This document shows positions 25,054 through 59,387 of a DNA stretch of 64,000 bases, piece after piece. Made by a program: the position numbers and the translations under genes. Location of the stretch: positions 44,946,965 to 45,010,964 of the forward strand of contig OX246744.1 in assembly GCA_945910005.1 (NCBI GenBank). The letters run 5' to 3'. Origin of the DNA: Isoperla grammatica. Taxonomy: Eukaryota; Arthropoda; Insecta; Plecoptera; Perlodidae. Position 1 is the first letter of the stretch. Each line of letters opens with the position of its first letter. Under the pieces are notes generated by a model. It saw nothing but the letters and a program-made list of their open reading frames with translations. It was not told where the DNA came from and did not search any database.

Positions 25054-25299
25054 GTGTCTATCTATGAGGGTAGAGAGGCCGTGGTGCCGGTCCACATGAC
25101 AGCTAGTGGACTCTACGACGTGGACTACCGCATCGTGACCGCGTGTAGAGACGGATCTATCAACGTGTGTCGCCGCGGTTACACTCAGGCCAAGACAGTC
25201 GTAAGGCTCAGTTCGCAGTGCGTTGCTATGGCGATCACTGATACCAATAACATCGTGGTGGCGACTATGGAGCAGACAATACACTGCTACTCCAAGAGC
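25054..25299 (+). CDS. BBS1: BBS1 exon (beta-propeller part), 82 codons
   Basis: This exon encodes part of the BBS1 beta-propeller. BBS1 is a subunit of the BBSome, the coat complex that carries membrane proteins in and out of cilia and is recruited by the GTPase ARL6/BBS3. The translation runs VSIYEGREAVVPVHMTASG... to ...HCYSKS and aligns well with animal BBS1 (for example DVDYRIVTACRDGSI against human DVEFRLAAACRNGNI). The acceptor is tttattgcag and the donor is agc|gtgagt; 246 bp keeps phase 0 at both ends. The next exon (26392) continues the propeller with GKKQWLV. The first ~100 nt are the source, or a surviving copy, of the 112-bp array upstream. The exon is intact, whereas array units have lost about 15 nt after GLYDV. 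Upstream exons lie left of the window. Confidence 0.93.
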
Positions 25300-25400
25300 G
25301 TGAGTTAAAACCGTTCATTACTATTGTTTTTTGTGATAGCTTTCACAATATTTAAAAAATGATGAATGCCCGATTTTTAGTTTCATGAGATCTAAAAATT

Positions 25401-25535
25401 GATTGGTTGTCGGTCACTCGTCGATGATTTTGGGAGGCTACAGAGTTGGTTTAGTCACTTTATATTAAAGTTCCTCACTGAAAATCAGTCTTGTTACTGA
25501 GTGGGTTGACTCTAAATGTGAATTAATTTATTAAT
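25401..25535 (+). mobile_element. SINE family 1, 3' fragment
   Basis: This matches the 3' half of the SINE described at 30959: gattggttgtcggtcactcg, then the 'ccactgaaaatcag'-type and 'actgagtgggt..actctaaatgtgaatt' segments. The tRNA-like head is missing and the sequence is diverged. Confidence 0.75.
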
Positions 25536-26049
25536 TTAATTGGATTTAATAATGGCAAATATTTTAATCATTGGGGTTGTTATTGATAATGTAAAATTAT
25601 TTCAATTAATTACTAATTACCTGGTAATGATAAAGTTATTGAATCATTTAGATAACGGTTTTTGTTTAGTTCTTTGATACCCTTTCACAACTCCTCCAGC
25701 AATAGCTTTGACTGCAAACAATTAGATCACTAGTAGTGGTACTTTCCTCTTTTCATTGACACAATCTTTTGCATTTGTTCCTATTTTTAGTAAATTCCCT
25801 TTTGTCCTTTTTTCTGTGGGTACTTTATGATACTTTTATTTTCACACTGTTAGGATGTCATGTTCATATTTATTTTTTTCTTAATTAGGCCTACCCTACA
25901 TTAAATAAATTTTCAATTAACATTGGGTTTAGCTTTTCTAAAGGCATAGTAGTTTGTTTCCTTATTATTTTTTTGCTATTTGTTCTGTGTTTACCAAAGT
26001 GTCTCATTGTAGGATTGTCTAATTTTGTTTGTCCTCCTTTGTAAATAAT

Positions 26050-26142
26050 GGTACGTTTACAGCTACGCGTTGCGAGCGAAGCGAAGGCGCGAGCTCCAAT
26101 CAGTGGCCGAGTATGCGTGAACCTATTAGCTGTAAACGTTCC
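26050..26142. mobile_element. Short inverted-repeat element (MITE-like)
   Basis: Terminal inverted repeats ggtacgtttacagcta and tagctgtaaacgttcc (one mismatch) bound a 93-bp GC-richer core (gcgttgcgagcgaagcgaagg). No clear target duplication is seen, so the superfamily is unknown. Confidence 0.5.
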
Positions 26143-26163
26143 AGTTTTATAAGGATCTGGCAT

Positions 26164-26371
26164 TAAATAAATACATAAATAAGTAAGTAAGAAGTAAGTA
26201 AGTAAGTAAGAAGTAAGTAAGTAAATAAATAAATAAATAAATAAATAAATAAAAAATAAATAAATAAATCAATAAATAAATAAAAAAATGAATGAATGAA
26301 TGAATGAATGAATGAATGAATGAGTGAGTGAGTGAGTGAGTGAATGAATGAATGAATAAATAAATAGAACC
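26164..26371. repeat. Compound tetranucleotide microsatellite
   Basis: Runs of taag, taaa, gaat and gagt repeat units follow one another without interruption. The block ends about 20 bp upstream of the acceptor of the next BBS1 exon, leaving only aactgtgcttcccccgcag as the splice tract. Confidence 0.95.
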
Positions 26372-26391
26372 CAACTGTGCTTCCCCCGCAG

Positions 26392-56300: not shown

Positions 56301-56622
56301 TAAACCAACCCTGTAGGCTCCGAACACCGTCAACGAGTGAGCGATAACCAAACAAAGATCGATATGTCAAGTATGAAACATATGAATCAGTGATTGGACA
56401 GTGCGAACACCTGCGGACAAATGTCAGAATCGACAAAGCCGATTCAGAACAACTTTGAATTTATTGAGTGCTCCGTTGCTACGGACAAACATGGAGACTG
56501 CATTTGCATTTTGAATGTAGGCCTAATTCTTGAAACCATCGTTACCAAACTGAGGTTACTAACGGCGTTGACTAACGGCTGCACTGGGCCGCACTGAGTG
56601 CCCAACAATTAGAAAAATATTC

Positions 56623-56995
56623 AACAATGCAGAAGGTCAAATCCCGGTTCAGCCAGAAGTTTTTTTAACTTCTATTAAGGACTCAGTTCCATTACTTCTC
56701 GTCTTAGGAATAAGTAAACGGTGACTTTGGAGCCGTCCTAGCAACGAAGCACTCAATAAATTCAAAGTTGTTCTGAATCGGCCTTGTTGATTCTGACATT
56801 TGTCCGCAGGTGTTCGCGCTGTCCAATCATTGATTCATATGTTTCGTATTTGAAATATCGATCTTTGATTGGTTATCGCTCACTCGTCGATGGTGTTCGG
56901 AGCCTACAGGGTTGATTTAGTCGTTTTAAATTAAAAGTCCCCCACTGAAAATCAGTTTAATTACTGAGTGGGTAGACTCTAAATGTGAATTTACA
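56623..56995 (+). mobile_element. SINE family 1, copy lacking the A-box end
   Basis: Starts at 'aatgcagaaggtcaaatccc' (B box region), continues with 'cttaggaataagtaaacggt' and 'ggccttgttgattctgacat', and ends 'actgagtgggtagactctaa' then atgtgaattt. No tail run. It lies head-to-head with the copy ending 56482. Confidence 0.85.
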
Positions 56996-57174
56996 GTCCC
57001 CTGGACAACGCCGTTAATCGGAGAGCTTGACGTGGTTGGCCAACTCTGACCTTGGGGTGATGGTCGGCAGGCGGAGGCAGCGAAGGCAGAGAAGTAGCAG
57101 AATTTGAATACCACGTAAGAGGCGGGAGAGAGAGAAGGAGACTTGATCTTGATGCATCCCATTCCTGTGGAAGA

Positions 57175-57545
57175 GAGGAGAGCAGATGAAGGATGGGGGA
57201 GGGAGAAGAGCAGATGAAGGATGGGGAAGAGAGGAGAGCAGATGAAGGATGGGGAAGAGACGAGAGCAGATGAAGATGGGGAAGAGACGAGAGCAGATGA
57301 AGGACAGGGAAGAGAGGAGAGCAGATGAAGGACGAGGAAGAGAGGAGAGCAGATGAAGGACGGGGAAGAGACGAGAGCAGATGAAGGACGGGGAAGAGAC
57401 GAGAGCAGATGAAGGATGGGGAAGAGAGGAGAGCAGATGAAGGATGGGGAAGAGACGAGAGCAGATGAAGGATGGGGAAGAGAGGAGAGCAGATGAAGGA
57501 TGGGGAAGAGAGGAGAGCAGATGAAGGATGGGGAAGAGAGAAGGC
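57175..57545. repeat. ~30-bp purine-rich minisatellite
   Basis: About 12 copies of gaggagagcagatgaaggat(ggggaagaga), with g/c and t/c variants and one short unit. Almost all purine on the plus strand. The 182-codon frame on the minus strand is a by-product of the repeat. Confidence 0.95.
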
Positions 57546-59240
57546 GGTGCCGGATGTATCAAGGGACGTATTTAGGTGGTGCCGGATGTATCAAGGGACG
57601 TATTAAGGCGGTGCCGGATGTATCAAGGGACGTATTTAGGCGGTGCCGGATGTATCAAGGGACGTATTAAGGCGGTGCCGGATGTATCAAGGGACGTATT
57701 AAGGCGGTGCCGGATGTATCAAGGGACGTATTAAGGCGGTGCCGGATGTATCAAGGGACGTATTTAGGCGGTGCCGGATGTATCAAGGAACGTATTAAGG
57801 CGGTGCCGGATGTATCAAGGGACGTATTAAGGCGGTGCCGGATGTATCAAGGGACGTATTAAGGCGGTGCCGGATGTATCAAGGGACGTATTTAGGCGGT
57901 GCCATGTACTAAGGTACGTATTAAGGCGGTGCCGGATGTATTAAGGGACGTATTAAGGCGGTGCCGGATGTATTAAGGGACGTATTTAGGCGGTGCCGGA
58001 TGTATTAAGGGACGTATTAAGGCGGTGCCGGATGTATTAAGGGACGTATTAAGGCGGTGCCGGATGTATTAAGGAATGTATTAAGGCGGTGCCGGATGTA
58101 TCAAGGGACGTATTAAGGCGGTGCCGGATGTATTAAGGGACGTATTAAGGCGGTGCCGGATGTATGAAGGCACGTATTAAGGCGGTGCCAGATGTATTAA
58201 GGGACGTATTAAGGCGGTGCCAGATGTATTAAGGGACGTATTAAGGCGGTGCCGGATGTATTAAGGCACGTATTAAGGCGGTGCCAGATGTATTAAGGGA
58301 CGTATTAAGGCGGTGCCAGATGTATTAAGGGACGTATTAAGGCGGTGCCGGATGTATTAAGGGATGTATTAAGGCGGTGCCGGATGTATTAAGGGACGTA
58401 TTTAGGCGGTGCCGGATGTATTAAGGGACGTATTAAGGCGGTGCCGGATGTATGAAGGCACGTATTAAGGCGGTGCCAGATGTATTAAGGGACGTATTAA
58501 GGCGGTGCCGGATGTATTAAGGGATGTATTAAGGCGGTGCCAGATGTATTAAGGGACGTATTAAGGCAGTGCCGGATGTATTAAGGGACGTATTAAGGCA
58601 GTGCCGGATGTATTAAGGGACGTATTAAGGCAGTGCCGGATGTATTAAAGGACGTATTAAGGCGGTGCCGGATGTATTAAGGGACGTATTAAGGCGGTGC
58701 CGGATGTATTAAGGGACGTATTAAGGCGGTGCCAGATGTATTAAGGGACGTATTAAGGCAGTGCCGGATGTATTAAGGGACGTATGAAGGCGGTGCCGGA
58801 TGTATTAAGGGACGTATGAAGGCGGTGCCGGATGTATTAAGGAATGTATTAAGGCGGTGCCGGATGTATTAAGGGACGTATTAAGGCGGTGCCGGATGTA
58901 TTAAGGCAGTGCTGGATGTATTAAGGGATGTATTAAGGCGGTGACTCACCCGTACATCCCGAATGTATTAAGGGACGTATTAAGGCGGTGCCGGATGTAT
59001 TAAGGGACGTATTAAGGCGGTGCCGGATGTATTAAGGCAGTGCTGGATGTATTAAGGGATGTATTAAGGGATGTATTAAGGCGGTGACTCACCCGTACAT
59101 CCCGAATGTATTAAGGGACGTATTAAGGCGGTGCCGGATGTATTAAGGGACGTATTAAGGCGGTGCCGGATGTATTAAGGGACGTATTAAGGTGGTGCCG
59201 GATGTACTAAGGGACGTATTAAGGGGCGTACTAAGGTGGT
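57543..59240. repeat. 32-bp minisatellite at the donor of the 59248 exon
   Basis: About 52 copies of ggcggtgccggatgtattaa(gggacgtattaa). Variants cluster by region: gtatcaaggg from 57545 to 57900, gtattaaggg afterwards, and gccaga and ggcagtg later. Two units (near 58938 and 59082) contain gtgactcacccgtacatccc, the exon-end/donor junction of the adjacent exon at 59238, so the array includes copies of the exon edge. Confidence 0.95.
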
Positions 59241-59247
59241 GACTCAC

Positions 59248-59387
59248 CCGTACATCCCGGATGTTGCCCGTCTCCTCAAGAGAGTCCTCGGAGCTGCGCC
59301 GACTAGACTGAAAGCTGTTGCTCGTGTTCAGTCGGGGACTTGTCACCGTCGTGTTGGCTGCCACTCTGGTCGTCCGCGACACCGGGT
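59248..59387 (-). CDS. LRRFIP-like gene, Ser-rich exon upstream of the coiled coil
   Basis: After the acceptor tgaacgtttcag the exon gives (D)PVSRTTRVAANTTVTSPRLN, TSNSFQSSRRSSEDSLEETG, NIRDVR, with donor gtacgg|gtgagt. The SSRRSSEDSLEE..IRD pattern resembles LRRFIP2 SSRRGSGDTSSLI...LRDI that precedes the coiled coil. 140 bp is 2 carried bases plus 46 codons, ending phase 0, which joins in frame to [10 protein letters not shown] at 54340. Earlier exons must lie right of the retrotransposon or beyond the window. Another small exon between 54340 and 59248 cannot be excluded. Confidence 0.78.

What the first reader, a model, noticed from the sequence alone, without database searches (positions are those of the whole stretch)
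25054..59387. Exon edges, not whole exons, are tandemly multiplied throughout two unrelated genes
BBS1 shows acceptor-side arrays at three exons (periods 112, 120 and 71/72 bp), a donor-side array at one (136 bp) and a 3'-end array at the last exon (71 bp). The LRRFIP-like gene shows donor-side arrays at 54194 (122/132 bp), 51107 (one extra copy) and donor copies in the 32-bp minisatellite at 59248. Every unit spans an exon/intron junction (or exon/3' UTR end), carries roughly 20-110 nt of exon, and repeats in place. No unit contains a complete internal exon. Periods and sequences differ, so these are independent events under a shared bias. I know of no described process that targets exon edges this way; candidates are replication slippage at R-loops or paused splicing, RNA-templated repair, or a systematic assembly error.
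Basis: partly seen in the sequence, partly recalled or inferred. Interest (0 to 1): 0.93.

Follow-up and report, generated by a model that had tools for sequence, protein, structure and literature searches.

The report
Tandem repeats spanning gene exon edges
Short DNA pieces covering the border between a coding exon and its neighbouring non-coding DNA have been copied head to tail, once about 300 times, in genes of what looks like an arthropod; the same oddity was described in lancelet genes under the name 'mirages', so it is striking rather than an unknown process.

Summary
In BBS1 (+) and an LRRFIP-family gene (-), units of 71-136 bp spanning exon boundaries are tandemly repeated at the stated places; the copy touching the exon body fits the reading frame. 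The largest array is bigger than reported: 300 copies over 34.5 kb, acceptor kept in 299 of 299 parsed units. Flanks and kinesin genes add cases. The phenomenon is not new: 'mirages', minisatellite-like duplications of intron-exon boundaries, are described in lancelet genes. A TTAGG-type repeat and mitochondrial gene order point to an arthropod, so the occurrence is new to me. 'Edges only, throughout' is overstated: 4 of 9 BBS1 splice edges in the window carry arrays, one array spans the stop codon, one lies in frame inside an LRRFIP exon (69 bp), and arrays also lie off exons. Seven rank-chosen kinesin loci show 1 array in 36 edges, near background; BBS1 is a local hot spot. Best reading: ordinary end-joining tandem duplications, mostly on exon DNA, filtered by selection so that survivors straddle a coding boundary or stay in frame, then amplified by unequal exchange. 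No reads or transcripts could be examined, and the genome-wide motif test was underpowered.

The parts
1..25122 (+). Acceptor-side 112-bp array of the BBS1 exon 25054-25299. It continues 9.4 kb before the window: 300 copies, 34.5 kb including an insertion
   Evidence: GCAGG acceptor in 299 of 299 parsed units; 147 of 283 full-length (112-bp) units identical, 57 distinct
17166..18121 (.). About 960-bp insertion inside the array, ends TGT...ACA, flanked by ATCT; LTR-like ends (inference)
25054..25299 (+). BBS1 exon; its acceptor is the last copy of the 112-bp array
26392..26620 (+). BBS1 exon without arrays at either edge
27418..28131 (+). Acceptor-side 120-bp array, 6 copies (AG kept in 5 of 6); last copy fits the frame
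28038..28330 (+). BBS1 exon with arrays at both edges
28220..28754 (+). Donor-side 136-bp array, 4 copies (GT kept in 4 of 4); first copy fits the frame
29710..30210 (+). Acceptor-side 71/72-bp array, 7 copies (AG kept in 7 of 7); last copy fits the frame
30173..30307 (+). BBS1 exon
31575..31748 (+). Last BBS1 coding exon, stop codon ends at 31748
31679..31895 (+). 71-bp array, 3 copies, spanning the stop codon and 3' UTR, not a splice site; joint with 4-bp overlap CGAC (by eye)
59248..59387 (-). LRRFIP-gene exon (by position and frame); its donor end (59248) recurs twice, motif starts about 59103 and 58960
57541..59224 (-). 32-bp intronic minisatellite that holds the two extra donor copies
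57169..57540 (-). 28-bp pyrimidine-rich intronic minisatellite
54194..54340 (-). LRRFIP exon; first donor copy fits the frame
51418..54274 (-). Donor-side 122/132-bp array, 23 donors (GT kept in 23 of 23), with a higher-order period of 498
51107..51329 (-). LRRFIP exon
50996..51106 (-). One extra, diverged donor-side copy after the 51107 donor
45131..45498 (-). 69-bp (23-codon) array inside the last LRRFIP-gene exon, within one open frame of 392 codons: counter-example to 'edges only'

Best explanation
These are exon-boundary minisatellites of the kind called 'mirages' in lancelets. Step 1 (inferred from joints): a DNA repair or replication error duplicates a piece of roughly 40-160 bp, closed by end joining, with 0-4 bp of overlap or 2-15 bp of extra sequence. 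Step 2 (inferred): most such pieces lie on exon DNA, which is GC-rich here. Selection removes those that break the protein, so survivors either reach past a coding boundary (intron or 3' UTR) and leave the spare copy in non-coding DNA, or stay in frame inside an exon. Step 3 (homogenised arrays shown, mechanism inferred): some duplications grow by unequal exchange or slippage into arrays of up to 300 copies. Step 4 (inferred from the reading frame): splicing uses the copy that touches the exon body (last acceptor, first donor), so the protein is unchanged. Why BBS1 has so many is not explained; it behaves as a local hot spot.
For: Boundary-touching copies give an unbroken 358-residue BBS1 C-terminus aligned over residues 11-354 with solved BBS1, and upstream exons matching BBS1 22-71 and 101-239. 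In 13 soundly measured arrays exon parts are 8-124 nt and intron parts 6-42 nt, with unrelated end points (a 14th row, L048 p89, was mis-measured). The exon part is the larger in 12 of 14 as scripted (P 0.013), or 13 of 14 with that row re-read by eye (P 0.0018). The stop-codon array and the in-frame 69-bp exon array fit a coding filter rather than a splice-site target. Edge-array periods show all remainders mod 3; the two arrays inside reading frames have 69 and 51 bp. Arrays occur off exons (25 of period 40-200 in 264 kb) and lean to GC above 0.5: 8 of 25 against 15.5% of background windows, P 0.03. Homogenisation: 147 of 283 full-length units identical; a 498-bp higher-order period in LRRFIP. 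Published precedent: PMC3087553, PMC3902484.
Against: BBS1 far exceeds the random expectation: 7 of 15 located splice edges, 3 of 6 located upstream edges outside the window (expected 0.07, P 6e-5; an exon for residues 72-100 was not located and would make it 3 of 8). A GC-rich rate still predicts only 0.017 per edge, so neither filter nor GC explains that gene. The GC lean is weak. Filler sequences showed no local template, so the joining pathway is open. No transcript data: use of the boundary copy is inferred.
Confidence: 0.66

Rival explanations
1. A mutational process is aimed at exon-intron junctions of transcribed genes, for example fork collapse at R-loops or at paused splicing, and multiplies exon edges.
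For: BBS1 has arrays at 7 of 15 located splice edges and LRRFIP at 4 of 13, all four at donors. Intron parts are short (6-42 nt), often little more than the splice signal. Three kinesin edges in two genes also carry arrays.
Against: Seven rank-chosen kinesin loci: 1 of 36 edges, expected 0.44. The CCT-family table shows no tandem partial exon match among 50 matches, though short exon parts would be missed. One array is at a stop codon. Short intron parts are also what a need for an intact splice site would leave.
Confidence: 0.16
2. Assembly artefact: copies created or mis-counted by the assembler.
For: Copy numbers of long arrays are hard to assemble; PMC3087553 reports an aberrantly assembled lancelet mirage. 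No reads could be seen here.
Against: Copies are diverged (57 distinct units among 283 full-length ones), a 960-bp element sits inside the array, 8 of 13 measured joints carry extra sequence of their own, and similar structures recur in unrelated genes on C14 and C15.
Confidence: 0.06
3. The arrays are kept by selection, as spare splice sites, regulators of splicing or sources of new exons.
For: Splice signals are intact in nearly all copies of the arrays counted. 16 of 22 LRRFIP units look like AG-exon-GT mini-exons.
Against: In the 112-bp array copies are near-identical, so intact sites are expected without selection. Periods of 112, 122 and 136 bp shift the frame, and reading on through the 112-bp unit meets stops.
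Confidence: 0.07

Closest known systems
'Mirages' of lancelets (Adh3, globins BflGb6/BflGb9, troponin C, PGBD5); PMC3087553 and PMC3902484, passages read
   Same: Minisatellite-like tandem duplications spanning intron-exon boundaries; both boundary types affected; many copies keep AG/GT; units of 150-160 bp in the globins and 10-72 bp in Adh3; concerted evolution among copies
   Different: Here the host appears to be an arthropod, one array has 300 copies, seven splice edges of one gene are affected, and a stop-codon boundary is affected as well. Undisturbed splicing is reported there, not tested here
Tandem genomic duplication as a route to intron gain (Rogers model), reviewed in PMC3443670, passages read
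   Same: Tandem duplication of a stretch holding splice-like sequence
   Different: There an exonic AGGT is duplicated and a new intron arises; here an existing boundary is duplicated and no new intron is shown
Ordinary minisatellites (general knowledge)
   Same: Period, head-to-tail structure, homogenised copies, higher-order repeats
   Different: Position: the unit overlaps coding sequence and a splice site or stop codon

Membership tests
Mirages (exon-intron boundary minisatellites) | Tandem units that span an exon-intron boundary | tested here: met
   14 arrays, each with exon and intron parts
Mirages (exon-intron boundary minisatellites) | Both acceptor and donor boundaries can be affected | tested here: met
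   9 acceptor-side and 5 donor-side arrays
Mirages (exon-intron boundary minisatellites) | Many copies keep AG/GT splice signals | tested here: met
   five arrays counted: 299 of 299 (p112), 5 of 6 (p120), 7 of 7 (p72), 4 of 4 (p136), 23 of 23 (p122)
Mirages (exon-intron boundary minisatellites) | Regular splicing of the mRNA is not disturbed | not testable with these tools
   Only the reading frame and protein match were checked
Mirages (exon-intron boundary minisatellites) | Length differs between alleles or tissues | not testable with these tools
   One assembly only
Tandem genomic duplication creating an intron | A new intron between the duplicated splice-like sites | tested here: inconclusive
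   16 of 22 LRRFIP units have AG and GT in the right places, but no RNA shows use

The most novel reading that the evidence does not exclude
In this arthropod lineage, exons of certain genes are germline hot spots of tandem duplication linked to their transcription or chromatin, so that a single gene (BBS1) carries boundary arrays at nearly half its located splice edges, including 300 consecutive 3' splice sites, nearly all intact, of which the spliceosome must choose the last. Such arrays would be a standing natural source of new exons and introns.
Probability: 0.18. Interest if true: 0.8.

Novelty: new member of a known kind. Interest (0 to 1): 0.5.

Why it matters
The host appears to be an arthropod, far from lancelets, so boundary minisatellites would be more general than the cephalochordate cases suggest. 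A natural intron ending in some 300 near-identical acceptors is a strong test of how exon definition picks one site. Arrays with fresh joints allow the published idea that such repeats become new exons and introns to be tested. For annotators, such arrays are a likely cause of wrong gene models.

Tried and rejected
RNA-templated repair from spliced mRNA: rejected, since each measured unit keeps intron sequence. Templated filler as a sign of one joining enzyme: no support; of seven fillers tested the single strong hit (p118) came from a context slice that held an array joint, so it is void. GC content alone as the cause: raises the expected rate only from 0.012 to 0.017 per edge. One search had given 0.019, and 9 of 25 GC-rich arrays (P 0.01); one unit is exactly 0.50 GC, so one search corrects this to 8 of 25 (P 0.03; 7 of 20 with repeated families counted once, P 0.026). 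L045 p59 next to a kinesin exon: a candidate at first, dropped because the unit lies in the intron only.

Genome-wide donor test: pairs of CAGGTAAGT at period 71-131 number 364 against 162 for the reversed motif, with 5036 and 6268 single occurrences. The excess comes largely from a few long arrays. Listings are capped: over the span both cover (C1 to C5:16.55 Mb) I count 7-8 distinct donor-motif arrays against 5 control arrays, which I do not take as a difference. An earlier, poorly designed pattern (40+73 against control 40+24) was not used. The same test with CAGGTGAGT, and the family searches PF00063, PF00069 and PF00133, did not complete.

Dropped rows before counts: the 25 non-edge arrays are the 39 rows less 12 boundary-array rows (11 splice-edge or stop-codon arrays and the second half of the split p112 row), the in-exon p69 and the retroelement p51; the 32-bp LRRFIP array (p64 row) stays among them although its donor copies also count as an edge hit. 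Two of the 12 edge hits (51107 and 59248) are by eye; without them 10 of 30. Kinesin loci fetched are ranks 4-8, 10 and 11 plus L048 (rank 13), which I had noticed for its repeats; ranks 1 and 9 (single open frame), 2 and 3 (near-duplicate loci) and 12 (small contig) were left out. Kinesin edges are counted as two per matched exon; two pairs of matches share an open frame, so 36 may be slightly high. Exon lists for BBS1, LRRFIP and the third gene are by eye; the upstream BBS1 exons, the LRRFIP N-terminal exon and the third gene were noticed through their arrays, and BBS1 residues 1-21 and about 72-100 were not located, so denominators are minimum values.
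Full report
Observation. The BBS1 exons in the window are 25054-25299, 26392-26620, 28038-28330, 30173-30307 and 31575-31748. Their joined translation of 358 residues matches solved BBS1 (6vbu) over residues 11-354 at E 4.9e-86 without a large insert. 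Two minus-strand exons (54194-54340, 51107-51329) match the Pfam family LRRFIP at E 6.7e-42.

Larger picture. I fetched 100 kb on each side and ran the finder on 264 kb. The 112-bp array begins 9.4 kb before the window: 34.5 kb, 300 copies, spacing 112 bp in 283 of 299 intervals. The acceptor GCAGG is present in 299 of 299 parsed units, 147 of the 283 full-length (112-bp) units are identical, and an insertion of about 960 bp lies inside. Printed flanks show more boundary arrays. In BBS1: acceptor side 139 bp x5 at -14342 (window numbering continued upstream), donor side 94 bp x2 at -12039, acceptor side 42 bp x2 at -11318; these exons match BBS1 residues 22-71 and 101-239 (6xt9, E 5.9e-49), so an exon for about 72-100 was not located. 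In the N-terminal part of LRRFIP (PF09738, E 7.4e-19): donor side 118 bp x5 at 74089. In a third gene, with only a sub-threshold Enkurin match (16.1 bits, cut-off 23.6): acceptor side 151 bp x2 at 160361.

Other genes. A search of the own genome with the kinesin motor family (PF00225, 132 matches) showed the same model stretch five times at about 152-bp steps on C15. Eight kinesin loci were fetched: seven by score rank, with five ranks left out, and this one by choice. They contain a two-copy acceptor-side duplication of 161 bp (L047, one of the seven) and two acceptor-side arrays, 152 bp x7 and 89 bp with 11 or more copies, in the chosen locus L048. The CCT/chaperonin family table (PF00118, 50 matches) shows no tandem partial match; arrays with short exon parts would be missed there.

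Anatomy. For 14 boundary arrays I measured how much of the unit is exon and how much intron. In 13 sound rows exon parts are 8-124 nt and intron parts 6-42 nt; the L048 p89 row was mis-measured by the script and read by eye as 76 and 13. The exon part is larger in 12 of 14 as scripted, 13 of 14 corrected. Three of five donor-side units carry only 6-8 nt of intron and acceptor-side units 12-37 nt: little more than the splice signal. Of the 13 joints 8 have 2-15 bases of extra sequence and 5 have none or 1-3 bases of overlap; the stop-codon array has 4 (by eye). A test for local templates of the fillers gave nothing usable. Remainders of the period by 3 are mixed in edge arrays, while the two arrays inside reading frames are 69 and 51 bp.

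Enrichment. Twenty-five non-edge arrays of period 40-200 in 217 kb give an expectation of 0.012 arrays per edge, or 0.017 with the rate in GC-rich DNA (which corrects). These P values assume independence, the edge counts are by eye, and exons found through their arrays inflate them. A donor-motif pair count over the whole genome gave 364 against 162 for the reversed motif, from 5036 and 6268 single occurrences, but it rests largely on a few long arrays; in the span both capped listings cover there are 7-8 distinct arrays against 5. So BBS1 is a hot spot, and a genome-wide preference for exon edges is neither shown nor excluded.

What it is. [quoted passage not shown] PMC3902484 (passage read) adds PGBD5 and cites troponin C. 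Seven paper searches (of these 20 named insects and 68 barnacles) listed no arthropod case that I recognised from titles and abstract beginnings; searches list only 20 of 61, 20 of 90 and 8 of 110 papers, and most subscription papers are not held, so absence from print is not shown. The genome is 874 Mb with chromosomes up to 137 Mb. Of 19 contig ends read, several of them starting in masked N, one (start of C8) holds the repeat CCTAA, that is TTAGG. The 16-kb contig C603 has COX2-K-D-ATP8-ATP6-COX3-G-ND3-A-R-N-S-E and F (tRNAs; protein genes named by eye), which I recall as the ancestral pancrustacean order. The species is not known.

How it works. I take the arrays as end-joined tandem duplications, mostly on exon DNA, whose survivors are those that leave the protein intact: units crossing an exon edge or the stop codon, or in-frame units. 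The array at the stop codon and the 69-bp in-frame array of LRRFIP speak most directly against a process that reads splice sites. Later growth by unequal exchange would explain the homogenised 112-bp array and the 498-bp higher-order period in LRRFIP. That the boundary copy is spliced is inferred from the frame. The excess in BBS1 remains unexplained.

Noticed in passing
G000 C15, many places: Chromosome C15 holds dozens of kinesin-motor fragments (model 1-94), many in opposite-strand pairs about 2 kb apart; nearly all listed ones are on C15 (one on small contig C464). Could be a repeat family of one chromosome.
   Followed up: no
window 17166-18121: About 960-bp insertion in the 112-bp array with TGT...ACA ends and a 4-bp flanking repeat, possibly a solo LTR.
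   Followed up: partly
window 57169-59224: A pyrimidine-rich 28-bp array directly adjoins the 32-bp array in one LRRFIP intron and ends at a CACAG.
   Followed up: no
window 60131 to 65757 (past the window end), minus strand: Retroelement-like reading frames; the 51-bp repeat at 63169-63513 lies inside one open frame.
   Followed up: no
upstream flank, about 65.6 to 54.8 kb before the window (L004, L005): Three separate arrays of the same 164-bp unit within 11 kb (2.6, 2.2 and 28 copies).
   Followed up: no
upstream flank, about 51.1 to 45.9 kb before the window: An open frame of 1757 codons, probably a mobile element; described only.
   Followed up: no
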